Below are positions 9,344-62,366 of a DNA stretch of 64,000 nucleotides, one piece after another. Source of the stretch: Ascidia mentula (Eukaryota; Chordata; Ascidiacea; Phlebobranchia; Ascidiidae). How positions within the stretch are numbered: the first letter of the stretch is position 1; every line of letters begins with the position of its first letter. The position numbers were made by a program, and so were the translations under genes. The notes below the pieces were generated by a model. The model searched no databases. It had not been told where the DNA came from and saw nothing but the letters and a program-made list of their open reading frames with translations. The stretch lies in the NCBI GenBank assembly GCA_947561715.1, contig OX387197.1, forward strand, positions 10,785,001 through 10,849,000. The letters are read 5' to 3'.

Positions 9344-11188
9344 ATGAGTGGAAGCGGTAAAGTAAGCAGCCAAATACTGTTTTTGTTTGTGTTAGCCATT
9401 GGCTTTCTGCTGTTAATTTATACAAACGTCAAAATCGCCAATGGGACAGCTTTTGATATGACACACGAACATAATATGTGGAAATCCATCTTCAAAGGAA
9501 ACGATGCTTCAGTGGACGAGGTGTGGGCTTTAAATACGCAAGATGCGTTGACTGACAACTCTACAGTGCTGTCCCCATATAAGGTAAGCTATTGGTTAAG
9601 TAGATTTGGCTAATTTTGCATTGGACACAGATAAATTGTGTCAACACCAGAAACCGTACTTCCTTTGCAGCAGTGGTGTTGGAGAAAAGTGTCATGTCTT
9701 AATCACATCCCCATATATATCAAAAATTACTAAAATATGTCATAAAGATTTCATTTTTGACCTTTATTGCTTGCAAATCGTTGTTTCGGTGTTACATTTT
9801 TCAGAATATTCTTCTGTGGGATAGTGTTTCGTGGTTTGCTCTGAAAACTGCTGGAAATGTTGATGCGTGCGGAAAGTGCTACATAACAAGAGATAAGAAA
9901 AAGGTCCAACTGCAAATTGCATAGCATTTGCATTATTTGTAAATTGTAACACTTGACTGAACCTAGTAGATTGCTGAGATAAACACTGGGGCAGTTCTTG
10001 TTGAGTGGAGTTCTAATCCCCAAAAACCACCTGGCAAAACCCAAAGGTAGGGGAAGGCAGATTCTATCTGCTAAAATATGTACAAAGGATTTGCTCGTTG
10101 TTACCAGCAATAGATGTATAACCATTATGGGAACTTTTCCATGCAGGCGGCAAGATCAGTTGTACGTTTGGTGGAGTATGGAGGGACCTTCCATTGCCAA
10201 GGGTGGCGACCCACAACGGTTTAAGCTTTATCCAAATGGTTTCTTCAATGCTACTCTTAGCTTCAGGTGACTGTATAGGTAATACATGATCCGCAATTTC
10301 CATGAACGCTGTAGATTTTGTGATCCAGAGTTATTTCTTCCATTGATTTGTTTCATAGCTTATATATCCGATTTATTTTATTCACTAATAAAAATTCAGT
10401 GATTACATAGACGAGACTCGACATTTTACAATCCTGTGTGGATATGGTTCGGCAACATCAGCATCGTCAATCTAGTAAAAACACGTTTTGGAGGTATTGA
10501 AAATAATCTTGATAAACTCCTGCTGCGCAAAAGCAAAGTTGCCGCCTGGATGGTAAGCAACTGCGGGACAGGTTCAAACGCAAAAAGAAGAATAACTTTT
10601 GCCCAAGAACTTGTCGACAACGGATTAAAACTGGAGCGATTTGGTAGATGTTTTCCAAAATCCGGATCAACTCCTAAGCGGAATACACCGGAGTTCTTCC
10701 GGTTTCTCGAACCCTACAAGTTTTACATGTCGTTTGAAAACGCCATCCACTGCACCGACTACATCACCGAAAAGTTCGAAATTAATGCATTGGCGGCAGG
10801 CGTGGTTCCTGTGGTCATGGGCGCGGCCAGAGAAGAATACGAAGCAATCGCCCCTCCACATTCCTTTATTCACGTGGATGATTTCCCGACGGCGAAGAAA
10901 CTAGTAGAATATCTCGATTATTTAGATAAAAACGCAACTGCGTACGCCGCATATTTGGCGTGGAGGACTATGGACCCTTATGAATTGTTTCCGTACGGCC
11001 GACATATTGGCTTTTGTCAACTTTGTCGGACAATGTACGGTGTATCGCCTGACGATCACCGACCTTTTGCTGAAATATATAACACCCGCAATGCCAGCTA
11101 TCCGAGTAATAGACCGATCAAGCAATACCGATTCGAATCGATATACGACTGGTGGCACGCATCCCAAACTCAGGAGTGCTTGGGATAA
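9344..11188 (+). CDS. GT10 alpha-1,3-fucosyltransferase, copy A
   Basis: Five exons: 9344-9583, 9805-9903, 9970-10046, 10147-10266, 10411-11188; 1314 bases, 437 aa, all phases consistent. It is a type II Golgi enzyme: a short cytoplasmic tail, an uncleaved signal anchor (QILFLFVLAIGFLLLIYTNV), a stem, and the GT10 catalytic domain. Exon 2 carries ILLWDSVSW, exon 4 VWWSMEGPS, exon 5 the donor-binding signature FYMSFENAIHCTDYITEKF followed by NALAAGVVPVVMG. Such enzymes move fucose from GDP-fucose onto GlcNAc of N-acetyllactosamine or related glycans. The C-terminal half carries several cysteines as in animal family members. It faces copy B tail to tail; exons 4 and 5 are nearly identical between them, exons 1-3 are not. 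Acceptor specificity cannot be told from sequence. Confidence 0.9.
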
Positions 11189-25918: not shown

Positions 25919-28900
25919 ATGAATTGGGTCACGCAAAATGCTCCTTTTGGGACTGACAACACACCAGTTTTGGAGGTTAAGATAGTGGGCGGAAAACGTG
26001 TGGAAGTGTTGGCTGACAGTGATAATGATCCCAATGCAGGGTGGGTGCACGCAGTAAAAATAGTTGTGTTTGCATCTTTTCTTTGTGACATGTATTTACA
26101 TTTGTAACTACTGAGAAGCATCTATATATGCTGCTATGCCTTCAAGTATTGTATTTTACGTATATACACAAAGTGTCATGCAATGCCCAGCTTATAGGCG
26201 CAACTTTTTTTCGTAATTATGTACTCATTAACAAAAACTTATTCCAATCTGTTTTACATGTGATTTGATTCACAAAAAAACATTTATCGCTTGCTAGAAC
26301 CCGCACGACCACTTATTGCTATTATAGTTAGTGTGAACAGTACAACGCACAGCGGTCAGGTTGCCAATGTAAAGTTTGCACAAACATGAAAATACTCAAC
26401 ATACAAAAGTAAACGAAATACACAATAGAATACTGAAGCTATGTTACACATGACAAGATTTTGTGTGCACAAGTGCAAATACGAATTCTAAATGCAATCA
26501 CGAAAGCCAGGCACTTTTCCATAAATAAATTTGTAGAAACACTGCTGTTGACATCAGGCAGGTTAGGAAGTCAGGATTTTAGTCAAAGTCCTAAATATTC
26601 AAGTTGTTTCCAATCCAATGGATAAAAAGTGATTCAGAAATATTGGAAAGTTGTATTTCTAGTTTATTGGAAATGTAGACTTGATCTAATTTACACTTTT
26701 AAAAACGAAAGTCTAAAACTTTAGTTTCAGTATTGTAATTTCTAACAATTGTTTGATTTTATTAACTGTTCCTATTCTAAACATGCTTTGTCTGTCAGAT
26801 TTCAACACAAAGAGACTATTTCCCCACCCAGAGGACCACATGGGACACCATCAATGCTTACACAGCCCATGTTTAGAAGTTATGCTTTTTCAGACCAGCA
26901 GCATGGTTTCAATACAGCCAAGCAGCACCAAATTGCAAGAGAGGTTGCCAACAGCACTACTTTCTAATAAAAACAACTCCTATGTTAAAGAAATTGTTAT
27001 AATAACAGTTTTACTGTTATCCGTGTTTGTTGCAAATAGAAAACTTCTTGCTAAAATAATCAGGAATGGACCAAATGTAACAAGTTTTGGTGTCAGACTT
27101 TTTTGCAAATTTTGCCACATTATTTTAAGTCAAATATAGAAGTAGAATTATAACGAATATTTTTTATTACTGTTATTATGAGAATCATTAAATTATTGAC
27201 TAATATTTCAGGTGACTTCATACACATCTCCCAATGGTGATCGCAGCAGATCTTTCCGACATGGTGCACCACTTCTCAATAAACACCCTGTGTTACCACC
27301 GATTGGAGCATCCCAACCTCCTGGTATGTTTGTTTTGTGGTTCACATTTTGCCATGTTATATTCAAGCATACGCATGTGTTTTTTAGGAAATACAGCAGC
27401 ACATCCAGATGAGTTTTTCAAACAGGATTTTTACCCAAATTCACAGCATATTGATAATCAACATAATGATGATGTTTCTTTAGATGCACTTGTTGCGCAT
27501 CAGCTAAATGGATTTAGACATGATAAGCTAAAGTATGTTTGTTCATTTGTGTGCAGCACTTTAAAAGTATTTTTGAACCATTTAACTATTATCTGTACAT
27601 TACTGCAACATTTTATTATCTGAAAGTATTTTATTGTTTTATGCTTAACCTTTATTTGTAGAGACATGTACATTGAGTTGACTGGATTTGATCGACACCT
27701 CACGGGTTCAGTTAATGAGGCCCAGCTTAATTTGGTTGCTATGAGATATGACCTTCCAATTAAAATGTCCACACTTAAAATGCTTTTGCACAAATTTAGA
27801 GGTACTGGAACTGTCTGTCACCCTTTCATAGTGAAATTTTGCAATTAAAATGTCATTTTGCTGTTCAGACAGGAATGAAAGCAGATCAGTCAAGTACGAA
27901 AAACTGCTTCAGTTTTTGTCTCAGTGCTTGTCATCGTCACCACAAAAACTTAAAGCTACAGAGTAAGTAAATGTTAATTCTTAGCTAATTGTAGTCGTGT
28001 AATGTGGTATGATGCATACTTTAGCCATAATCATCAATAGATACTTTAAGTGGTTTGTGGAGCCATAAACTGAATAGGCAAAAGCATTGTGAATGGTGCT
28101 TATGTCTTAAATTGTATACAATTAGGTTTAGCAATGGCATCGCCAACTCAACTCATCATTTATTAATGTCACAAAAATTTGGGTTTAAATATGTCCACTG
28201 CATTCATACAAAATAATGGCAATTATGACATGGTTCATGCGGGTTTGTAACAATGTGGCAGTAAATAGTTTGTGTAATGTTTTTGTGCCAAGAAATATTG
28301 TGGTAACGCACACAAAGCAAAAATCACTTGTTTTAATACAGCATCAGCCTTGCATAATATAGGAAAATATATTTTGCCCTATGGGCATCATCAATTTCGT
28401 ACTCAAATAGAACCACCAAAAAGCGCAGTGATCCCCAGATCCCCCTCTGGAGTTGGTGGTTCAGATCCTCGTGTTCCACACTAGAAGTCATTTGTGAAAC
28501 AAACACTTTTCATTGTGTAAACCTACCCACACACTATTTGTAACCAACGAAGCATTTTAAGTATCATTCTGTCACACAAAAATGTGGACTGTTACCAACG
28601 CCCACCAAAAGTTAACAAAGCACGCTAATTAGTAATTAAAAGCATGCCCACGTGTAGTGTTGCACCGTCTGTGGAACGCAAATCGAGCGTGAAAAAGAGC
28701 GCGACGCCCCTTCCAGCTCCTGGTAGCGAAAAGGATGAAAAGCTTCTGAGTCTGCTTCGTGTCCAACTTAGTGGTTCGGAAGAAATCAACGTTCGAGACC
28801 TGAACGCTGCGTTTACCACTGCAGACAGGTAGACCATTGTTCGTTGTCAAATGTTACAAATGTTATCGCACCGAAACAACTGCTAATTTATAAACGATCA

Positions 28901-31900
28901 GCCCAAAGCATATTCAGCTGACTTCGTTTGGATATTTTCACAATAGCTGGGAAAATTTTGCTGTAAATTCCCTTATTTTCGATCAAACTAGGTTTTAAAA
29001 TTTGATAAAAATGTGTGAATGCTTTTACAGACTGGCGAACGGAGAGCTTCCCTCGTACACAGTTGAAAAAATCTGCGTTGAGCAACGACTTCCACTGACC
29101 AGTTCCGTTATCTTGAAGATGTTGCAATACACAGAAACGTCCCACGGAAATATAAAGTAAGCCTGGTTACAAAATTGTGGTGTTTCGCTTAAGTGCTTTC
29201 CTGTCTGTGAAAATTTTGCAATTTTGCACCTGGTAAAGAGTTTACAAACACTAAACATTTAAAATTAGAAGTAAAAAAAAACACCAGACTAAACTGTGCT
29301 GGTTTGCTAAAACTTTCCGAACAGTATTGTCAAGTGAACTATGCCATTGTGTTAAATGAGAAGGTACATTTAACGAATAATGTAAACTACTTTTAGGTAC
29401 ACTTATCCTTGACCAACCTCTAATTGAAAGATTTTCGTACAAACCCATTTAGATAGAAAACATACCAAGTAGCAAAAATCAGATACATAATATTAAAATT
29501 CGAGTTTTTTGTGGCTCCTTGTAGTGTAACAGTTCAATAATTACATGTCCCCACAATGAAAACTATCATAACTAAATAGTTAACTTATCAGCTAACCTAT
29601 AGGAACTTTGTGCAGTAACCTTTTTAATGGTGATTGTCAGGAAGCTAGATGGCGCTATTGAGGCAAAACATTGTATTGTAGTTGGAGAGAGTTCGTTGAT
29701 CTTCTGATGCGAGCCGATGAGCGAATCGAACACGGGGAAGTGAAGAAGCACGCCACTCCGACCCGAACACCTTCACAACGTATGGTGGAAAAGCATGAGA
29801 GCGGAATGTGGAAAAATGGTCAAACTGAGGCTTCTTTACCAAGTATGCTTTGGCCATTGATGTTTGATTTTTTTAATACTGCGTGGTGTGCTCTTACATC
29901 GAACACTGATGTAGTATTTAGAGTACAACGATTTAGTAATAAGTGATGACAAACGCGTATGAAACAATTTTTATTTCAATTCGGAGAAAAGTTGATTCAG
30001 CTTCATGTAAAACATTCGTTGGTTGAAGACCGGAAAACCTTTTTTCGAAAACACCTCTGTGTACGTGATTTACAGAAATCGAAAAAACGCAAGGGCACAC
30101 TAACCCTCGCGTCATGTGGGTAAATAACTCGCCGGCGTGGCCGTGCCCACATGATTTACGCGTGTTTGGTGAGAACAAACAGCTTTACACAGTTGGTGGC
30201 GTGGTGCTAGCGTGGTGGCGTGGTGCCGGCATGGGGATGCGGCTACAATACCCACATGCTTACAACACCCCTACAAATTCCTCGGGTTATTCGGGGTTAA
30301 AACCTACTTGACAAACCCATCATGCTTGTTTTCCGCTAAAATTGTCACCCAAGCTTGTGTTTACATATGTAGCTAATTTGTACGACTATCGCCTTGTGTA
30401 CCAAACAGCCACCGGAATGCTGTAAAAAACGGTTTCGCAAATAAAAGTTTTAAAAAACAGTTTTAAAAACAGTTTTGTACAAGTTGGATTGCACATACAA
30501 TGACTTCATACATTTGCTGCGTCTTCATCAATGTTGGAACCCCAGCAAAACTCGAAAAAACGCTGTTTCGATTTGATGTGTCTCGCTTGCCACTGTTCTC
30601 TAAATGCGTTTTAACCGTTTCGTTTCAATTTATAAGACCAATTCCACTTACAAGCTGTTACTGTTGATTAGGCGATTAAACAGCAACTCTAATATGTGCT
30701 CAGAAAGGCAAAATAGGCGCATAAGCTTATAACTTTCAACAGAAAAGACAAGGCTAAGGTGGTGCACGCTTTTAACACAATCTTAGCTTTGACTTTTCTA
30801 TTCAGAGGTAAAATAAAATTATGCTAAAATAAAATTATGCTTTGTCAAAAAAAGTGTATTATGTAGATTAGTTGCTCGTTATTAAAACGTTTTGCTTATG
30901 TTTAAAGATGGGGTCACAGGGAGGTCAACGGAAATTGACGGAAACTTTTCGAAAACCTATGAAGGGTTTCATTCGTCGCGTCACGGAGGTGAGGTAACCG
31001 CCTCTCCTACTTCGTCCAAGCAGAGCCGCAACATGTCTACAGGTAAACTGGCAACTCCTTTCAGGAATGTTAATTAAATAGATACGGAGTAGGATTAGCG
31101 TAACGGCTTGCTACCGAGTCTAATTGTTACGTAGGTAATAGTTAGCATTCTTTACCTTTCTGAAGGCTTGAATAAAAATGATTAAAAAATTTTAAACAAA
31201 CCGTTTCAAAATGCGTAAAGTCGATTTTTAGTGTTACGTGATCACGCAGGTTGTATTTGGTATCACCATTGCACAATTTAATCCCCTAATAGTATTCAAG
31301 GGCAACCAAAGAGGCTGTTGTTAAAAATAAGTCATGTCACCCAGCAGTGCTTTTGCCATCAAACACAGGTTGGGATGAGCGTGAACCAAGACCTTTAGAC
31401 GTCAAGGATCAACAAAAACTGATGGACGCAGAAGTCAGAAAAACTGAAACTTGGATTAGAAATTTTACCCGTCTCGCCCACGCCCTCCGTAACTACCACC
31501 CTTACAAAAATGGTGAGAAGAATATAATCAAAACATTGAAAATACTACTAAACCAGCGTGTTTTAAATTTTGGTTTGTATTTACTTGGGTCAATTCCTGC
31601 GTTTTTTATCCGCTCGGTGTTGCTATTGAGCTAATTTTATCCTTAACGGTGATAATACCTCGAGGCGTATGACCTTGCGTTGACGACAAAGAAACGTGAA
31701 ACCATGCGAGCGCGCTGTTGTGTTGTGTTACCGTTCCAAATATGGATCATGCCAATAGAGGCCCTTCGCGATGGTACGCAGTCTGTCAACAAACACAACG
31801 GCATGTAGTAGATGTTTTGTTGTGCCTAAGAATGGCACGCCACGCTGTGTGTGCTGATTTGTTTGAACGTGGAAGCCTTGAAACTTACGGATACTTTGCA

Positions 31901-32089
31901 GATGCTCTGCCGCGCGGCGAAGTTGCGCGAATGGCGAATAACTACAACCTGATATACGGCCTCGGTTTCTCCAAACGTCACTTGAGCGAAGCCATCAGCC
32001 GGGCAGTGACGTCACACAGCAAAGATATCACCGATCAAACGGTATCTGTCGACAAACTGCTTGAACACCTCGCAGGCATGGCTGAGTGA
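25919..32089 (+). CDS. EF-hand-like protein resembling C1orf87 (CREF)
   Basis: Twelve exons: 25919-26040, 26799-26943, 27212-27323, 27388-27532, 27662-27801, 27869-27962, 28643-28828, 29031-29156, 29682-29818, 30908-31042, 31369-31512, 31761-32089. They sum to 1815 bases, 604 aa, and every junction agrees in phase. The first third is low-complexity (ISPPRGPHGTPSML). The middle has two EF-hand-like pairs: LTGFDRHLTGSVNEAQ with KYEKLLQFLSQCL, and LLRVQLSGSEEINVRDLN with NWREFVDLLMRAD. The calcium-ligand positions are poorly kept, so calcium binding is doubtful. This arrangement recalls human C1orf87, a little-studied EF-hand protein of ciliated and other epithelia; I recognise it by layout only. 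The C-terminal exon (SRWYAVCQQTQRHVVD) is helical. An alternative last exon at 33279-33444 is possible. Confidence 0.7.
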
Positions 32090-34879
32090 TTGACAGCCCG
32101 AAGGACGACCGACCCATATTGTCGATATGTTTGTCGTAGTATTAGAGCAAGCATAAAGTCGAGTAGTTGTTTGGTATTCTTCTGATCGACCTATTATCAG
32201 ATACACATGACATGCAGTAACCGTGTTTGCATTTTTCTTTCTCTCAAAAGCGAACGCGCAAAAGCAAGATTTTACAGCTAGCGCGTTTTTTAGACTTGCA
32301 GCTTATTTTATGCGTGCGACAATCCTTTTAGGCTTCCAATCCTATAGTAGCGTTATCACTGTGTTATGTATAAGTTGCGTATCTCAATTGCCTCGCATTT
32401 CCGCTACCTGTACACAAATAATGTAATGTGCCTTACTTTATAGATAGCACTTGCGATAATAAACTTCTTGCAAACAACATTTCCTGTTATGGCAAAAATT
32501 ACAGCTGGTCATTTTGTCCATTCGCCACCATTTGGCAACTGATTAGACTAAACAGCGTTGTGTACAGAATTTTGCAATTGTTGTACAACATTAACAGCAT
32601 TCGAATTTACGGTCTGCAGAGATCGAAATCCACATTAATGATTTTTCAATCAATGTTAGATGAATGAACCCCAAAGTAGCAAACCTCTGAAGTACTCGGT
32701 TGGTGACTTAACTTCAACTTTTTTGATTAAAATTGCGGCAAAATTTTCGGTTACAAACGTTAACTGCATAAGCTTTAAAACCGATATTGCAGACCGTTTT
32801 TCCGCAAAACCTATAGGAAATTTAATATTTACCGAAAAAATCTTTTCGTATATTTCGTCTGTCAAACAGTTTTTTCAAAAAATTTCCAGGTGGGGCGTAT
32901 ATAGATTGGCAACAAAGCCATTGCGCATAAATTCCTTCTCATAAAGGTCTAGTGTGTTGTCATGGAATGTAAACATGGGACAACAAAGAATTTATGAAAA
33001 CTTCCTCCTACTCGGTGGGGGAAGCACAATTGGATTTTTATCAAAGAAATGCAGCGTAATTCACCCTCCCACTGGACACACCGCTTTGGGGGCGTTGCCG
33101 GTTCTATTTTGGTTACAACACAATATTATTATTTTAGTTGCGGGGTAGTCCATACATCACATCCAACGATACAGGTACGCACAAAGCGTGTGGCGAAATC
33201 AATGCTGTCTACACCCCCCTAAGTTACTGTTCTCCCTTTCTTGGTTAAGCAGTTCATTTTTTTATTTAATCCCAACAGCCGTGATGGCGCGCATGATCGT
33301 CGTATTCATCAGGGTCAGACTGCGACTGTCTCCGATTTGAAGCAGATGAATAGCGGACCAAGCATTAATGAATTGCTTCGGACGACCAGCCATATGCCAC
33401 GTTTCGATACAAACGGGATATCTCGACCTCGGCCGTCAGAATAAATCAATGGAAAGCTCCTGATCAATTAAAACTAAATCCTTCGCAGGTCGTTGCTTAG
33501 AAGAACTTTTTTATTTGCATTTGTTCGTGCGAGCCACGGGGTTTGAACAAAATCGAAACACAATTTTTTAACCCAATATAAATCGTGATGAAAGTCCAGT
33601 GCAAGACATTTTTTCCAACTGGCGTGCCGAACATTCAACGCCCACCATCCACCCTGGGCAAAGTCGACCCACATAAACGATTGGAAGAGGCAAAAATCGA
33701 CTTTGCTCTCTTGGGCATGGGGGTGTGAGTGTAATATCAGCCCTACATAATGTGTTCACCCAAATGAAAACAAAAGCTCGATATCCTGCTACTCTCAGTG
33801 AGAGGTCGACTATTTTGAAACCTAATCCTTGTAACTTACATAACATCTCGTTATTTAGGCACAAGGTGAAGCTGGGTATTCCATTCTGCAACGTCAGCTC
33901 TCGAAATGAAAACAATGCCCTTTTAACCATGCGTGGGTGATTTATGGCTGCTACATGGGCTTCAGACAAAACAGACAACCTTATTCTTTTTCATCAGTTT
34001 TTTTTTGTCATACAGAAAACACGGTAATCACCATAAACGAAAAATCGCGATAACCAAAAGAAGTTTCACAGTGAACGAAACGCTAATATTGAACAATTTT
34101 GTGCCGCTGAACATTCCTCGTACACAGCACAGAGAATCAAATCAAAACGCAGAGTGGCGAAAGCACGACATTCTTGTTGATAAACGACGGTTTGCAATAT
34201 TTGAAAGCGTCTTTCCTTCGTCAGTGGAGCGGCCATCTATTGCACAAATTTAGTTACAGGGGCCGGGTCAACATACATGTGTGTGAAATTGGTAATCACG
34301 TCATAGAAGGAGAGGCAGTCGGCGTGTTGTGTTTTTTTCGGTTTTCTATAAGGCACTTGTGCGAGAACAAGCCGAAATTGGAGAGCAAGTCGAAACGGAT
34401 GTATGCACGTCCACCGGAAAACAGCGCATGAAAACTGTTGCTGATTCATTTCACAAAGCGCGGTTGCTTAGATACAAGAGAGGTAACGTCAAAGAAGAGT
34501 GTTACGTCACTGGTCGGTTAGGGTTCGGGCCAGCAGCAGCGAACACGTCAGGCGAAATACATACGCAGGGGAGAAACAACAGCAGGTATGGACGCACAGT
34601 GGTGGATAAACGGATGTTGTTTCGTACTTCACATCACACGCGGCACCAAATTGTCTCAGCGGGCGCGTGTTGTACAGAACGATTCTGTACGTGGCGACAA
34701 TAAATAATTTTAGCAATATGAATATAAATATAAATAAAATAAATACTAAACTTTGTTTTTGTGGCGTTGAAAGAAACGAAATGGGACAAATGGTACCACT
34801 ATGTGCAATGCAACTGTTTCGGCCTTGAGCGTGAAGCTCGGCCACCATCTCATCTGCACTCACTTGATGCTGAGACACT
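32090..34879. other. Intergenic region between the EF-hand and lipase genes
   Basis: Contains the possible alternative exon at 33279-33444. An exon-like piece at 34355-34482 (after ctataag, ending AGAGAG|GTAACG, reading LVREQAEIGEQVETDV) could not be linked to any partner. The lipase 3' end enters from the right. Confidence 0.35.
33279..33444 (+). CDS. Possible alternative terminal exon of the EF-hand gene
   Basis: The piece follows a pyrimidine-rich acceptor (atcccaacag), reads RDGAHDRRIHQGQTATVSD and onward to a TAA inside AATAAAT, which could double as polyadenylation signal. It needs a donor in phase 2. The last codons of the main terminal exon offer GCTGA|GTGATT at 32085, which has that phase; using it would swap the final residue and stop for 54 more residues. 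The donor is weak. It may instead end an unrecognised gene. Confidence 0.3.
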
Positions 34880-39773: not shown

Positions 39774-41930
39774 AAGTTAGGAAAACTGAACAACACAATG
39801 AAACTAGAATCTGAAACAAAAAATAGGCTACATTATATATGTTTCCATATTTTAAACATTAGGCATATTTTGTATTATCTGCGCTGCTCATTTACATTTT
39901 ATATAGTAGGCAACATACAAAAATGTTTCGTACTAACTAATTTATCATTGACATTCAGTATGTAAGAAAGCTATAAACACGACATTTCATCTTTATCTAA
40001 TAGTATTAAATAGTCCACCAAAAAAATACTATTTACTTCTTTCTAAACCCAGATCCTCTGCGTTTCACAGCCTGCCTGCAGACAATTGACAGTTGACATA
40101 CCTATAAGTGCCTCATGCATACTACTCAAACGAAGTCAAAGCATGTCTGTACAGACTGTCCGACATCACAGCCTCTCAACCGGCTTTTACGCTCTGATGA
40201 CCCCGTAGTACGTTCTTTCCAATTCACGACACGGGGTCAGGCGATGCATTGTCAGCCAATCAGAAGGCCGGAGAACAACTACGCCTGAGTTCGTAGTGGA
40301 ATGATACGCTGTCCTTGCATTCTTGGTGTTTAAATGTGATATTTCTTGACTGACAGCAAGATAAACTATTAAAATCATGTATGTAATGTTTACTAAAGTT
40401 TCAGGATTACAAAAGTGCGCAGTAGTTTTTGATATGCGCAACGACACAAGGTTAATCACCGAAAGTTTTAACTATGGTCGTTTAGGCCAAAGAACAAGAA
40501 ATAACTCAACTTAGTCAAGTATAAGCTTACACACTTCTAGAAGGGACTTCATAGATCGATATACAAATGGCAGTGCTGTGTTTGAACGAATGTTACAGTA
40601 AATTTGTATGGAATGACCTAAGGTAACCTCGAATAGCAAACCGCAGTATGTCCTGGAGTAAACTCCATCGACGTTTTTCTAAATGGCTCTGCCATTACTT
40701 TAATTCATGCCCGATTGCCCGTCACTGTAGTCACTCCTGAGAAATGTATAGCGGTGGTTTTGGTAATGCTGTGAAGTACTTTTATGGGTGTTGTGGAAAA
40801 CTGAGACTACTTCAAACGAAAAGAATGTAAATCTTTGCGGTCCATAAACTAACTGAACTAACCTGTTTGTGCGAAAACAATTGTGGTTGTAACACAACAA
40901 TCAATTCAAAACAATCTGAAATATACGTTTTGGGGAAAGCATTTGTTGCCACTGACGCTTCTTTGACATCAGTGAAGCCGTATTCTTATCAGAAGCTGAC
41001 AGATGTTGTTCTAGAAGTAATTTCAATCACTTTTTATGTGTTAACCAACACAATTAGCGTTAAACAATATCTTAATATTGTCCCCACTGCGTTTTAGAAT
41101 AACGTTTCGAGATATTTCCGAGATTTTTCACAAATGTTTCTGCGCAGCCTTGAGATTATTTGCCTGCAACTTAGCTACCACATAAACATTGAGTGGCGCT
41201 CTACTAACAGAAGCAGTACGTTTAAAGGTACTGCAGTATTCAGGTCAATAAGACATTACATGATGAAAATAAATGTTCGTCCGTACGTTGACATTGTTAT
41301 ATCATTAAAGTTTTGGGAGAAAGTCCGGGGAGAAAATAAAACAACTTTGTATATGCATGGATTGGCGGTAAGATCAGCGCATTGCATTTTTTGCTCAACA
41401 CCGCTATCTAACGGAGTGTTTCCCAACCATTTTGAGGTCACGAACCAACACTTGGAGGCAACGCAACGACTGGCTGCCAGTTTTTGTTCTGAATGTAACT
41501 TTTGCTTGTACAAATGTACAGTAAACCTCAGTGAAGCCGGATTCGATTTGACGGACAGATTCGTCCGGATTAAGCGAAGTTTCTGATTATCGGAGGACGT
41601 TTGTTTTATGCTTGACGTTGGGAAGATAGTATGACTTTTGACTTGGTGACAGAATTTTTCTTTTCTTTCAGTAACAATATATACAGGAAGAATATAACCT
41701 TTTGGCTTTTGTGGCAGAGCAAAAGGTTTATAAAACCAATAACTTACATAAAATGCAAGTTAGTTATCATACATTACTCCAAACTCGCTATAAAGAGAGG
41801 CCTAACATGTGGTTTTTGTTCCATCTGTACCATTATCCAGCTATACATTATTTTAGTCGTAAACACGTTAATTTCGCGTGTTTTACCCACAAAAACATTG
41901 CATGCACTCTTGTTTACCATGCCGAAAAAC
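39774..41930. other. Intergenic region upstream of the lipase
   Basis: No exon recognised. A stretch at about 40110-40205 (caaagcatgt, gacatcacag, ttttacgctctgatga) matches 61170-61262, so it is a dispersed repeat. The right part (from about 41600) begins to match the kinase gene's first intron. Confidence 0.35.
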
Positions 41931-56645: not shown

Positions 56646-57065
56646 AGAAACATTATATTTGGTTGTAAAAATTCGCATTTTCGTTGCTAGACTTCGCACC
56701 CAGACCTGCCAAGGGTCACAACTTGAATTTTCTGAATCTCCTCTCGCGTGAACCACAGTGACGGACGACTTGGTTTTCTGCACTTATTAATCGTATTGCT
56801 GTGGATCAAAGCAGTCAGATGAAACACTTCCTGTCACCGCTTTTTTTAAGTATTTTTTATGGGAAAAGCGGCAAATAACGGTTAAAAGTGGCTACATGTA
56901 AAAAAATAAACTATTTATTGATTTATTTCTTGCCTGCATTTCGTGGCCAACGTGCTGCGCTCCTTTAAATTTCTTCTAAAGCCTAAAGAAGTCAATATCA
57001 ATTTCAAAAATTTGCGGTACAGATTCAACACATAAATTTTGCTGAGTAAAACGTACTGAAAGAAC

Positions 57066-57179
57066 CTGCTTGTGGTCCTTCTGGGCCATGCGAATTTTCA
57101 CCGTCCTCTTCACGGACAAACTGTTCGTCTTCAACAGCTGCCAATTTCGGGTTTGTTACGTCCGAATTATGGTGTTGGC
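57066..57179 (-). pseudogene. Orphan exon related to the unrecognised gene at 58.9-61.1 kb
   Basis: The piece starts after aaccag, reads NSDVTNPKLAAVEDEQFV and ends GCAG|GTTCTT. It resembles exon 10 of the neighbouring gene (GSDATRPKLTADAADNG) in sequence, acidity and length (114 against 120 bases). No partner exons were found, so it is either a relic of a tandem copy or an exon of a gene I cannot see. Confidence 0.35.
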
Positions 57180-58183
57180 CTGGTTAAAAGAGAGGAGGCA
57201 TATTTAAAACGTGCCTAACCTGAAATCGTACTCAATCAACATCATTGTTTGAGTACGATTGCATATAAAAGTAATCTATTCGTTATTGTGCCACATTTTA
57301 TGCAATCCCTACAGAAGGTTTTTCGTTCGTTTTAGCTTACTAAAAGTGACCATTTAGCTCGGTACCGGGGTAACATCGGACGTGACTGGGAATATCCCTA
57401 TATAGCTCGGATAGCAAGTTTTAACAGACGTTTTGTTGTTTATTTAACAAACACCTGAAATTAAAGTCGGCGCAATATCGGCATTGGGGCATTAGCGCAT
57501 AAAATATCATTCAAGCTTTCTGGAATCGTTGCGTGGCCACTTGCCGTTTCGACCCTTCCGCACGTACAGGATTTCCAATGTTGGGTTTAACTCGTGTACA
57601 CTTCGTGGCAGCATGGCTATCCTAGATTTTAGGGTCAACAAACGAATTTTTGTCTTTGGGCTCCTTTTACTGCCAAAATTCGATCATTTCATCCAACCTC
57701 TGTTTATTCTCCTCTATGACCTGATAATTTTGCCTAAAACTCAGAAAGTGTTGTCTTCTCACCATGATTTCCGAAGTATCCCCGATCACGTGACGACATA
57801 TAAATTACAAAAATGTGGTCGTATTTTGGACGTTGGACAAAATCATCATTGGTTCATCCAAGTAAACGTAGTTGATATAATTCTAAACTTCATGTTAACG
57901 TGTGATAGCGACATAAAGCGTTTACAAGTGTTTTAACAAATCCTAATTGTGACGTAAAATACCTTGTCCGAGGTATCCCCGGTATTCCCTAAGTTACTTT
58001 TTATATTGATGTAAACCAGCGGTGCTTATAATAACCCTTTTTCTTATCGACAACTCTTTGAAATAAAAAACTACTTTCCTACATCGGCGCAATATCATAT
58101 CAACATGTCATTTTTCCCGTAACGCACCCCAAGAGCTCATAGTGATTTGAAAACTCCCATTGGAGAAAACCTAAACAAATGCG

Positions 58184-58222: not shown

Positions 58223-58856
58223 ACAGTACTTTATTCGCCGAATCAAGGATAATATTAGAAAAATACAAGACATAAAAACCACGAATTATGTATAAATGTA
58301 CCGAATTATTTTTACGCAAAAATGACGAATTATAGCCTATTGACAGAAAGATATGTTTGAAACACCACCAAACTGACTGCAAATGCAGACTTTGTAGCCA
58401 CAAGACAGGATGGCACTTATTATTACTCGAAATTACTTTGGCAGTTTAATACCTTGTTGCTTGTTGCAGCACGCCATTATGCGATTATATAGTTTTTATA
58501 CACGATTTTGGTTTGTGTTGCGTGGAATCACCTAGTTTCATGTAACAGCTATTTGAATCAGCAACTGCAGCATACACGCTGCCTTAAGTTCATTTGTTAC
58601 CACTATAAAATTAGGTGTCATACCAACATCCAATAAACCCAACCCACGAACGATTGCATCTTCATAGATACATATAACAATTCACATTCGACACAACTGA
58701 CTAAAAATGCCGACAGAATAGCTACACAAGGACAACGATTTGAGGATCGTTGAAAAATAAATAAATAAGAGTCCCTCGTTAATAAAGGGGAGTGTTAAAT
58801 TGTTAATACAAATCCAACGTGAGATGCAAAACATAGTTTGACCTCAAGAACTGGGT

Positions 58857-61071
58857 TCAGTTTTTGCTACGCAACTTCTTCAATATTTTCTTTGTTTTTT
58901 TAAGATTTTTTGGTCCAGTCTTCTTGTTTGCCGGTTTACGACCATCTGCAATGCCTATAAACATGAATAAATTTAACATCTTGGCCATGCTTTTGTTTGG
59001 AGAACAGTTTTACCTGAAGTTGTTGCATTCGATTGCTTTTCTGCTGCTAGTGGGTCCTGTGGTAAATCTAAAAACAAGTTCGTTGTTTCAATATCTATAA
59101 CTCGCATTTAGTGCTTGCTTCCACTATTTATTCAGTGTAAGAATATCGTACAGAAGCGCACGAACATAATAACGGTTCACTTTTGCGATAAAATGTCAAG
59201 TAATTTCTCAAATATAGCTTTGCTAATATTCTGCTTTCCAAATAATTTGAATTGCAATGGGAGTTACCAAATGATTCCGGAGTAATGTCATTTTCAGATG
59301 AGGAACTTCGCTCATCTGATGCCAAATGTCCACCATTATCTGCAGCATCAGCGGTAAGCTTCGGTCGTGTTGCGTCGGAACCATCACCTATAACCACACA
59401 CCGCATGTTGGCTTGTAAGGTATAGTGTGGGGTTAACCAGACTTTTGTCACTCGAACTATTGTTTAGATTTTGGCAATGCTGCATTACATGACGAGAAGT
59501 TTGTGTCGCTGGAACTTGGTTGTCGGTCGCCGTCTGGAATGGGAATAGGAAGTCTTCTTTGTCTGTTGTTAATACAGATGTTACGTTTTACAAATATTTC
59601 AACATAATGGCCTTCGTTTAGTCTCAAGGAGAATAGCAAACAAAATTTTTTTGTTGGCAAAAACGGCAATGGGCCTGCATTGAAAGGTTTGTTGATGTCA
59701 AAACAAACTGCAGCCGCTTGTGGATAAAACAACTAAAAATACGTTAAAAGACAAGGACGCCCAGTCACAAAATGTTTTAGGGTCTCTCGTGTGTTCCAAG
59801 ACGCCAACCTTTAAAATAAAGTCAAATTTAGACAATGGGACGATATAAAAACCTGTAAGTGCGCTCTGTTGTTGACTTTTTTTTGAAAGTTTATGATAAA
59901 ATTTAAGAAACTTGGACTCACTGGTGGTTGGTCTCTGCTGGAATGCTCTCATCTGTGTCCCATTGAGCTGGATCAGCATATATCGGGTCTTCATTGGTTG
60001 GTGCTTCCCATTCGACGTAGCCATTGTTGGGGTTACTTTTCTAATAGTTCTGTTGTTAACATTAAGACAATAGTTTATATTTTAACCTCTTACCATTTTT
60101 TTCATTTCGTCGACGAGCATTTTCACCTGCGTCAAAAAATTTATGTTCTAGTTAATTACCTTATATGTCTTCATATTCCAGTCGTAAAATTGTAAAAGTC
60201 CATCTCTAGTATGCAAATTATAAACAATTGACTTTTTATCATTTATGTTACCTGGTTATTGTGTTCATCGAGATCCTGAAAAACATAATCAGAAACAAAT
60301 GATAAAAAATACTATGATAATCACAGGCTATAACGTATCAAGGTCTAACTAAGGTAACAAGAACAATAATTTTTACCTTTACAATAGATTCCAACCTCTG
60401 CTCTGTACCCATTCTGAGTTTTAGATCCTAAACAAAGTAAATGAGGTTTCATCTTTAGTGTAATTAGTATATTCCTACCTTGATTTCCTTTTGTAATTCC
60501 TCGTTCTCTCGGCATTTGTCCTGAATTGCAAAAACATTTGGTTTGCACCACACAGAAACGTGTGTTTTTTTTTGCACGCGTTGGTATTGAGGTTTTTTGG
60601 TATAGGAAGCCAAAATCCGGCCATGTTTCTTTTTCTCATAAACTTAAAACGACTACCAACGAAATTAAAAATATCTGACCAACAAGCTATCGTTACCTCA
60701 TACATTTTCTCCTTGTTTCTCAATTCTCGAATCATGCTAGAATTTTTGTCCTGCAAAAGCAACGTTTTAATTTAGATTTTTTTGTTGAAAGAAGTGTTTT
60801 CGAAAAATGTAAGAAGAGCGAACAAAACAGATTAAAATTGTAACATGCGAATCTACTTAGTTTAAGAACTCAGTCAAGTAGATGGAAATAAAAATAATAT
60901 TGACTACTGTATGCAAGTAAATTATTTTTTTTTATTGCCACCCTAAATGCATTATTTTAACTTTCACTTTCAGTGACATACCAATACATTTCTTATTAAG
61001 CTTTCACACATTTGCGGATTATCCAAAATTTTTGCTTCGAGAAGTTCTGGGATCGTCATTGAGCACTGCAT
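58857..61071 (-). CDS. Unrecognised 12-exon protein: coiled coil, acidic middle, basic tail
   Basis: Exons right to left: 61071-60982, 60750-60697, 60520-60479, 60427-60377, 60275-60252, 60126-60094, 60040-59922, 59808-59743, 59562-59489, 59387-59268, 59067-59014, 58954-58857. They sum to 825 bases (274 aa); every junction has GT-AG ends and agrees in phase. Exon 1 starts MQCSMTIPELLEAKIL. Exons 2-6 are micro-exons of 24-54 bases, all phase 0, four of them beginning with Asp, together a charged helix (SMIRELRNKEKMYE, CRENEELQKEIK, LEEHNN-like DLDEHNNQ, VKMLVDEMKKM). Exon 7 is acidic and Pro/Trp-rich (VEWEAPTNEDPIYADPAQW). Exons 9-11 are Ser/Asp-rich. The last exon is very basic (KKTGPKNLKKTKKILKKLRS), which could bind nucleic acid or act as a nuclear signal. 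No signal peptide. No family recognised; exon 8 is the least certain. No long ORF marks this gene. Confidence 0.65.
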
Positions 61072-61285
61072 GATCTTCTATTAACACCTCCTTTATTAAC
61101 CGAAATACATATCTCTTCCAAAATCAATAAAACTATTTAAACTGATTAACACCTCAAACTCACTTCGCAACGCAAGCTACTCAAACGAGTCAAAGCATGT
61201 TTGCACAAAGCGCCGACATCACAGTCGATTTTACGCTCTGATGATCGTCCCCGAATGGTACGCTGCCCTTCCCTTTTCTAGTTTT

Positions 61286-61340
61286 CAACTTTTGCTTCGC
61301 GAAGTTTTGGAATATCATTGAACACTGCGTAATTCTTAGT
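61286..61340 (-). pseudogene. Decayed duplicate of exon 1 of the unrecognised gene
   Basis: ttttgcttcgcgaagttttgg and atcattgaacactgcgtaattctt match 61027-61080 (ttttgcttcgagaagttctgg, gtcattgagcactgcatgatctt). The start codon is lost (ACG in place of ATG), so it is not a second start. Confidence 0.55.
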
Positions 61341-62366
61341 ATGGGGGCGCGTGCAGATGCGGCTCTATATCATACCACCCCACAAAACCAAAGTATATGT
61401 CTTTGCCAATTATGCAAAATTTATTGTGACACTTCACTATTATCTATTTAGCTATTATCGAACATTATTGTGACATCCATTTGACAAATTCCCAATGCCA
61501 CAAAGCAGCAACGAAACCACGACAAAATAAATAACATCATTACGAAGAAATATTGTACAATTTTGAAGAAACTGTGCCCTGACAGAGATACGTTATCGAG
61601 GACTTTTTGACATATGCTACGGGAAAAAAGTTTTTTATAGAATCCACACAAAATGACGAAACGAATCTTATTTAAATATGCCGATTTCAACAATTTTCCT
61701 TTATTCTCAATCGCACCAACCCTTTTCAGGCACATTCTCTAAATGCAACTACACCAAGTCAGTACAGTAGCTAAGTAACTGCTCTGTATTAGTTCCCTGT
61801 ACTTGTGATGAAACTGAAAAATATTTCATCGCTGACATATACCCACAAAAACTTTTGGGGGTAACCCCTGGTATTTTTACCTGTGGGATTGTATTAACCA
61901 CACGATTGTCTTCAGGTTCATTGGGCGTGGAGTTATTTCAACGATTGCACCACCGCTCTGTAAAACATTAACTTTTGAGGACACTCGACATGAATAGTTT
62001 GCTCAAGCGAAGTATGTCAAAACATTGGCCACGCATAGGAACCGGTTGGTTTCGCATGAGTCCCTTCTGTTCTTCGATCAAAGTAAAATTATGTCGCTAC
62101 AGCCGAAGTTCTTTTGTCACCATGCATGACAACCGTTAATAAGTTTAAGGTCATACACAGGAGGTTGGATGTATAATTAATTTGTGCATGTTTATTCCTG
62201 AGTCTTCTGACCATCTCGTATCGAACCACAGTCATAGATTTTTCTCACAAATTTAATTACTTTTTCATGGTATGTTTGCGGTCCAATTTCATCCCCAGGT
62301 ATGATATTACTGTTGCTTACTTAATGAGCGGTGTTTTGTTGTATTTATTTTTGAACGTATTAACCC

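What the first reader, a model, noticed from the sequence alone, without database searches (positions are those of the whole stretch)
58857..61071. A 12-exon gene of no recognised family, built from phase-0 micro-exons
The chain of twelve GT-AG exons gives one 274-aa frame with no phase error, which is very unlikely by chance. Five consecutive exons of 24-54 bases, four starting with Asp, make a coiled coil whose length could be tuned exon by exon. The basic tail and acidic middle match no family I know. A plain ORF scan sees nothing here. This is my best candidate for an undescribed gene.
Basis: partly seen in the sequence, partly recalled or inferred. Interest (0 to 1): 0.7.

Follow-up and report, generated by a model that had tools for sequence, protein, structure and literature searches.

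The report
Orphan coiled-coil gene with tiny exons
A sea squirt chromosome carries what looks like a genuine, single-copy gene cut into eleven small pieces that encodes a rod-shaped (coiled-coil) protein of no recognised family; it is an ordinary kind of gene whose identity and job are still unknown.

Summary
The gene is very probably real. On the minus strand, 61071-58857, a simple splice-plus-codon chain finder picks 11 coding exons (252 aa) scoring 58.8 bits; 0 of 1000 dinucleotide shuffles reach it (maximum 15.8) and the antisense strand gives 5.4. Exons 1-6 (all phase 0; exons 2-6 of 54, 42, 51, 24, 33 nt) are the secure part and survive removal of the codon term. The genome matches Ascidia mentula; the searches found no second copy there. 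Pfam and PDB give only coiled-coil noise. Likeliest: a dimeric coiled-coil adaptor with an acidic linker bearing linear motifs (VEWE, IYADP, QWD); that mechanism is inferred from sequence alone. No other tunicate genome or transcript could be searched here, so 'undescribed family' remains untested. Interest is modest.

The parts
60982..61071 (-). Exon 1, 90 nt, ATG at 61071 (a second Met at 61059), phase 0 out; MQCSMTIPELLEAKILDNPQMCESLIRNVL
   Evidence: chain finder; no second copy found
60697..60750 (-). Exon 2, 54 nt, phase 0-0; DKNSSMIRELRNKEKMYE
   Evidence: best acceptor of exons 2-11
60479..60520 (-). Exon 3, 42 nt (two heptads), phase 0-0; DKCRENEELQKEIK
60377..60427 (-). Exon 4, 51 nt, phase 0-0; DLKLRMGTEQRLESIVK
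   Evidence: dropped only at the harshest of four penalties
60252..60275 (-). Exon 5, 24 nt, phase 0-0; DLDEHNNQ
60094..60126 (-). Exon 6, 33 nt, phase 0-0; VKMLVDEMKKM
59922..60040 (-). Exon 7, 119 nt, phase 0 in, 2 out; acidic, motifs VEWE, IYADP, QWD; an in-frame TGA overlaps its donor CA|GTGAGT
   Evidence: strong coding score but weak acceptor (-6.2); absent from the splice-only optimum
59489..59562 (-). Exon 8, 74 nt, phase 2 in, 1 out; QRRLPIPIPDGDRQPSSSDTNFSSC
   Evidence: moderate; absent from the splice-only optimum
59268..59387 (-). Exon 9, 120 nt, phase 1-1; DGSDATRPKLTADAADNGGHLASDERSSSSENDITPESF (called E10 in scripts and notes)
   Evidence: high coding score, weak splice sites; absent from the splice-only optimum
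59014..59067 (-). Exon 10, 54 nt, phase 1-1; DLPQDPLAAEKQSNATTS (called E11 in scripts and notes)
   Evidence: dropped at the harshest penalty, and begun at 59056 in the splice-only optimum
58857..58954 (-). Exon 11, basic last exon (net charge +12), TGA ending at 58857 (called E12 in scripts and notes)
   Evidence: extension score 5.0, reached by 17 of 1000 shuffles; nearest AATAAA downstream 58235, an ATTAAA at 58450
57025..57179 (-). Alternative last exon (E13 in scripts and notes), phase 1 in, acidic tail (net charge -6); gives 271 aa
   Evidence: extension score 12.8, reached by 17 of 1000 shuffles; no second copy found
56914..56927 (-). Two neighbouring AATAAA signals (starting at 56927 and 56919) about 100 nt after the alternative stop
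59743..59808 (-). The extra exon of the only 274-aa solution; judged not an exon
   Evidence: costs 9.6 bits
61287..61328 (-). Decayed copy of exon 1 DNA (about 84%, one-base deletion, first ATG lost)
57311..57992 (.). Interspersed repeat inside the last long intron or 3' flank
   Evidence: 102 matching pieces including the window itself; 40 of 256 candidates scored

Best explanation
A real, single-copy, protein-coding gene of Ascidia mentula chromosome 1 with 11 coding exons on the minus strand. It encodes an intracellular protein of about 252 aa (or 271 aa with the other 3' end): an N-terminal coiled coil of about 70-90 residues spread over exons 1-6, then a long, probably disordered acidic segment, then a basic or an acidic tail depending on the last exon. 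Most likely mechanism (inferred, about 0.3 on its own): the coil makes it a dimer and the acidic segment carries short binding motifs, so that it works as a dimeric adaptor or scaffold. Shown here: chain, strand, no second copy found, coil periodicity. Inferred: intracellular location, dimerisation, disorder, adaptor role, use of either tail.
For: Chain score 58.8 against at most 15.8 in 1000 shuffles and 5.4 antisense; robust to penalties, and for exons 1-6 to removing the codon term. The same finder gave chains with a Pfam family in 7 of 7 other chains submitted, out of 10 printed (NAD kinase, DAO, Kelch, fucosyltransferase, kinase, lipase, DUF5580). No second copy found in the 195.8-Mb assembly. 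Coil register score reached by 1 of 2000 shuffles. Net charges by region: tails +12 and -6, exon 7 -8.
Against: No transcript and no relative from another species was available. Splice matrices were generic values set from general knowledge, not trained on this genome. Exons 7-10 depend on the codon term; exon 7 has a poor acceptor. Neither 3' end is decisive (17 of 1000 shuffles reach each). The motifs were picked after reading the sequence; the Leu/Met usual in W-acidic motifs is absent.
Confidence: 0.55

Rival explanations
1. It is the Ascidia ortholog of a known animal coiled-coil gene that has diverged beyond Pfam and PDB sequence search; the 'no family' reading is then an artefact of sensitivity. 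This is compatible with the gene being real.
For: Only weak coil-type hits (Lebercilin 16.7 bits for the first 138 aa and 14.8 for the whole, cut-off 34.3; HAUS6_N 12.6 against 26.4), the usual picture for diverged coiled-coil proteins; tunicate sequences evolve fast (general knowledge).
Against: No hit reaches a curated cut-off; the 90-aa C-terminal query has no hit at all.
Confidence: 0.45
2. The gene normally ends in the acidic exon 57179-57025, and the basic exon 58954-58857 is an alternative last exon or not used.
For: Full chain scores 66.5 with this end against 58.8; strongest acceptor of the chain; AATAAA at 56927 and 56919, against none until 58235 (an ATTAAA at 58450) for the basic end.
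Against: 17 of 1000 shuffles of the 2.45-kb stretch give as good a last exon; the same number holds for the basic exon in its own, much shorter stretch.
Confidence: 0.5
3. Two transcription units or isoforms: a 138-aa protein of exons 1-7 that stops at the TGA overlapping the exon-7 donor, and something separate downstream.
For: Exon 7 reads straight into TGA; the middle exons have the weakest splice sites.
Against: Exon 7 ends in a near-consensus donor CCA|GTGAGT; the downstream exons continue in frame and add score; the first AATAAA or ATTAAA after that TGA is at 59132, about 790 nt on.
Confidence: 0.1
4. A decaying copy (pseudogene) of a gene lost elsewhere.
For: A broken copy of exon 1 lies 200 bp upstream; a repeat sits in the 3' part.
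Against: The chain itself is open over 252 codons, and no other copy was found in the assembly.
Confidence: 0.05
5. Chance chain of GT-AG sites.
For: Exons of 24-54 nt are easily open by chance.
Against: 0 of 1000 shuffles, antisense 5.4, plain reversed 1.8; also 0 of 300 shuffles when the codon term is removed.
Confidence: 0.02

Closest known systems
Schistosome micro-exon genes (MEGs)
   Same: Runs of very small symmetric exons (passages of PMC4350168).
   Different: MEG products are said to carry a signal peptide and most of their coding region is very small exons; here no signal peptide is evident by eye and exons 2-6 make 204 of 759 coding nt.
Aphid bicycle genes
   Same: Many small exons of one phase, found by gene structure rather than sequence (passages of PMC9168663).
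   Different: Bicycle internal exons are almost all phase 2, about 17 exons per gene, in a large family; here phases 0, 2 and 1, eleven exons, one gene.
W-acidic kinesin-1 adaptors such as SKIP and calsyntenin
   Same: Two tryptophans followed by an acidic residue in an acidic segment (VEWE, QWD) (passages of PMC5450233).
   Different: The Leu/Met often found at W-2 is absent (Val and Ala); no binding data; no homology.
CRK SH2 ligands with YxxP such as BCAR1
   Same: One YADP site after acidic residues (YxxP consensus, passages of PMC5043372).
   Different: A single site, not an array; no SH3 or FAT domain found by Pfam; phosphorylation unknown.
Coiled-coil families in Pfam: Lebercilin, HAUS6_N
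   Same: Weak score over the coil only.
   Different: Far below the curated cut-offs; nothing outside the coil.

Membership tests
Schistosome micro-exon genes | Most of the coding region in very small symmetric exons | tested here: not met
   204 of 759 coding nt in exons 2-6; definition from PMC4350168 passages
Schistosome micro-exon genes | Signal peptide | tested here: inconclusive
   none evident by eye in MQCSMTIPELLEAKILDNPQMCESLIRNVL; no predictor was run
Aphid bicycle genes | Almost all internal exons in phase 2 | tested here: not met
   of nine internal exons six start in phase 0, one in 2, two in 1; definition
Lebercilin (PF15619) | Score above Pfam's curated cut-off | tested here: not met
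   16.7 bits (first 138 aa) and 14.8 bits (whole) against 34.3
HAUS6_N (PF14661) | Score above Pfam's curated cut-off | tested here: not met
   14.4 bits and 12.6 bits against 26.4
W-acidic kinesin-1 adaptors | Trp flanked by Asp or Glu | tested here: met
   VEWE on both sides, QWDTDE on one side only, in exon 7; post hoc; 1025 of 20000 shuffles of exon 7 also have two W[DE]
W-acidic kinesin-1 adaptors | Leu or Met at W-2 (often present) | tested here: not met
   Val and Ala
W-acidic kinesin-1 adaptors | Binds the KLC TPR domain | not testable with these tools
   needs a binding assay
Y-acidic KLC1 ligands | Y-acidic core at the protein's C-terminus (free carboxylate critical in JIP1) | tested here: not met
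   the Tyr is internal; requirement from PMC6214655 passages
CRK SH2 ligands | Tyr-x-x-Pro, phosphorylated | tested here: inconclusive
   YADP present; phosphorylation not testable

The most novel reading that the evidence does not exclude
A tunicate-restricted gene, born or rebuilt in that lineage, whose micro-exon coiled coil feeds a docking segment (W-acidic-like and YxxP motifs) and whose C-terminal charge is switched between about +12 and -6 by choice of last exon, giving two adaptor isoforms with opposite tails.
Probability: 0.07. Interest if true: 0.5.

Novelty: new member of a known kind. Interest (0 to 1): 0.25.

Why it matters
It shows how genes built of very small exons escape an ORF scan yet are recoverable from splice and codon signals together, and it supplies a tested exon model, with two candidate 3' ends, for a gene that profile libraries do not name. 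If relatives exist only in tunicates it would add one lineage-specific cytoskeletal or signalling adaptor; otherwise it is an ordinary diverged coiled-coil gene.

Tried and rejected
The extra exon 59808-59743: enumerated with alternatives and rejected. Exons upstream of exon 1: extending the search to 64 kb adds none; extending to 72 kb fuses the chain with an upstream 7TM-like pair while skipping exon 1, which I take as an artefact. Likeness between exons: 59387-59268 against 57179-57025, 39 of 5000 shuffles reach the score, suggestive only; the basic exon against a second basic reading at 56982-56915, 50 of 2000, not used; exon 9 against exon 8, 356 of 2000, and exon 8 against 57179, 1537 of 2000, no likeness. 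Relatives in viral contigs: none (first 138 aa only); genome contigs (prokaryotes) was not scanned. Rfam: no match in the window at gathering score, none in 61080-61400 at E up to 1. Papers: none on this gene was among the titles listed by 'genome sequence / sea squirt / chromosomal pseudomolecules' (4 of 5 listed), 'ascidian / coiled-coil / micro-exon' (15 of 121), 'tunicate / orphan genes / ascidian / lineage-specific genes' (8 of 14) and 'Ascidia mentula / coiled-coil / gene model' (8 of 774), which is weak evidence of absence. Structure prediction was not run: its stated rule admits proteins that the DNA gives letter for letter, which I read as excluding a spliced chain.

Method limits: splice matrices are generic values recalled, not trained here; the codon table comes from kinase matches, 4567 codons, 19 of 30 fetched kinase loci (11 dropped; 127 matches in all), with amino-acid frequencies set from general knowledge. 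One search read minus-strand loci in the wrong orientation and was replaced. For the positive control 7 of the 10 chains printed were submitted, one cut to its first 370 residues; left out were the second fucosyltransferase copy, the retroelement-like chain and the 6.6-8.6 kb chain. Several controls begin with implausibly tiny exons, so their 5' ends are unreliable. The sliding scan gave 190 window-strands, of which I saw the best 40; this region ranked second. Genome searches score only the best candidates and look exon by exon, so 'no second copy' means none found at that sensitivity.

Full report
Where it is. The window is C1:10785001-10849000 of an assembly of 195.84 Mb in 79 contigs. Totals differ slightly (197.0 Mb, 95 scaffolds in the paper).

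The observation. The gene lies on the minus strand. I wrote a chain finder that scores start codon, donors, acceptors, codon usage and stop, with generic splice matrices and a codon table from 19 kinase loci of this genome. For 58750-61350 its best chain has 11 exons: 61071-60982, 60750-60697, 60520-60479, 60427-60377, 60275-60252, 60126-60094, 60040-59922, 59562-59489, 59387-59268, 59067-59014, 58954-58857; 252 aa; score 58.8. The best of 1000 dinucleotide shuffles is 15.8, and no shuffle's best chain has more than six exons; the antisense gives 5.4 and the plain reversed sequence 1.8. Changing the splice penalty from -5 to -9 leaves the same chain three times and a 9-exon subset once, each above 200 shuffles. 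Without any codon term the score is 7.9 against a maximum of 4.6 in 300 shuffles, and exons 1-6 and the last exon stay, but the middle is rerouted through 59533-59402 and 59056-59014. So exons 1-6 are firm and the middle is a best guess.

Enumerating one or two exons between exon 7 and 59387 gave 140 in-frame solutions. The only one of 274 aa has an added exon 59808-59743; it scores 55.4 against 65.0 for the 11-exon solution.

The small exons. Exons 2-6 are 54, 42, 51, 24 and 33 nt, all symmetric in phase 0. In seven other predicted genes of the window, 7 of 52 internal exons are 54 nt or shorter and none are adjacent, so a run of five is unusual locally; some of those seven are probably prediction errors. 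The repeated Asp at exon starts is expected in part: the acceptor consensus CAG|G forces a GNN first codon in phase 0, and donors favour AAG, GAG or CAG at the end (inference). Of the lengths 18, 14, 17, 8 and 11 residues only 14 is a multiple of seven, so exon skipping would in most cases shift the coil register; tuning by exon has no support here.

The protein. A heptad-register score of my own finds a nearly continuous register over residues 11-98 with two breaks; 1 of 2000 shuffles reaches it. Net charges: coil -3, exon 7 -8, exon 59387-59268 -6, basic tail +12. For the whole protein Pfam at E up to 1 lists Lebercilin, DUF484, HAUS6_N, Csm2 and TMEM120, all far below cut-off; the first 138 aa at E up to 10 list 17 families, best Lebercilin at E 0.0056 and 16.7 bits against 34.3. 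PDB gives mostly natural and designed coiled coils, best E 0.21 for the whole protein and 0.0093, a designed coil, for the first 138 aa. No second copy was found in the assembly.

A second 3' end. Extending the search downstream, the best chain ends instead in 57179-57025 (score 66.5, 271 aa). That exon has the best acceptor of the chain, an acidic tail (-6) and two AATAAA signals about 100 nt beyond its stop, whereas the basic exon has no AATAAA before 58235, only an ATTAAA at 58450. As last exons the two are equally surprising against shuffles of their own stretches: 17 of 1000 each. Between them lies an interspersed repeat at 57311-57992 with many genomic copies (102 matching pieces including the window; 40 of 256 candidates scored). 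Both ends are in phase 1 and could be alternatives. A further AATAAA at 59132 lies just after a stop reached if exon 9 runs on without splicing, a third possible end that I did not score.

Surroundings. Downstream, tail to tail, is a gene whose predicted protein hits NAD_kinase. Upstream at 64-69 kb on the same strand the finder sees a tandem 7TM-like pair (no Pfam hit for the one tested; '7TM-like' is by eye). A decayed copy of exon 1 lies at 61287-61328, and 61177-61244 shares about 70 bp with 40122-40200 near the predicted start of a lipase gene, also on the minus strand.

How it may work. Exon 7 reads KSNPNNGYVEWEAPTNEDPIYADPAQWDTDESIPAETNH. It contains VEWE and QWD, which recall the W-acidic motifs by which adaptors bind kinesin light chains (passages of PMC5450233), although the Leu or Met often found at W-2 is missing; and IYADP, a YxxP of the kind CRK SH2 binds when phosphorylated (passages of PMC5043372), close to an Abl substrate peptide that begins IYAAP (passage of PMC546003). 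A Y-acidic reading fails, since in JIP1 that needs the free C-terminus (passages of PMC6214655). Only 2 of 20000 shuffles of exon 7 hold all three loose patterns, while singly they occur in 1025, 131 and 351; they were chosen after the fact, so this is no test. I therefore commit to 'dimeric coiled-coil adaptor with an acidic docking segment' at about 0.3 for the mechanism, while the existence of the gene stands at about 0.95.

Known kinds. It is neither a schistosome MEG (most of the coding region in very small exons, signal peptide) nor a bicycle-type gene (phase-2 exons). It is an ordinary intron-rich animal gene of unassigned family. Whether the family is new needs other ascidian genomes, which were not available here. 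Interest 0.25.

Noticed in passing
window 57179-57025 (-) and 56927-56914: Alternative acidic last exon with two AATAAA signals, possibly the true 3' end of the gene.
   Followed up: partly
window 59132 (-): AATAAA just after the stop reached if exon 9 is read on without splicing: a possible third, intron-retained 3' end.
   Followed up: no
window 57311-57992: Interspersed repeat with many copies in the genome (102 matching pieces including the window; 40 of 256 candidates scored), in the 3' part of the gene.
   Followed up: partly
window 61287-61328: Short decayed duplicate of exon 1 including its 5' flank, one-base deletion and the first ATG lost.
   Followed up: partly
window 61177-61244 and 40122-40200: About 70 bp shared, same orientation, upstream of this gene and near the predicted start of a lipase gene; only these two places found in the genome, no Rfam match for the first.
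   Followed up: partly
window 9458-11188 (+) and 15043-12276 (-): Two fucosyltransferase (GT10) genes in inverted orientation whose large exon ORFs differ at 3 of 262 positions (Pfam for the first).
   Followed up: partly
window about 15.9-18.4 kb: Higher-GC stretch whose translations recall a BEL/Pao-type retroelement (recalled, not searched).
   Followed up: no
G000 C1:2.0-2.8 Mb and C2:0.4-3.3 Mb: Clusters of kinase-domain matches, mostly in open frames and many covering profile positions 44-259, among 127 PF00069 matches: a lineage expansion or mobile family.
   Followed up: no
L048 (window coordinates 64136-69087, -): Tandem pair of predictions that look like 7TM receptors by eye, with near-identical segments; no Pfam hit for the one tested.
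   Followed up: no
window 25919-33444 (+): Predicted gene with DUF5580 domains, family of unknown function.
   Followed up: no
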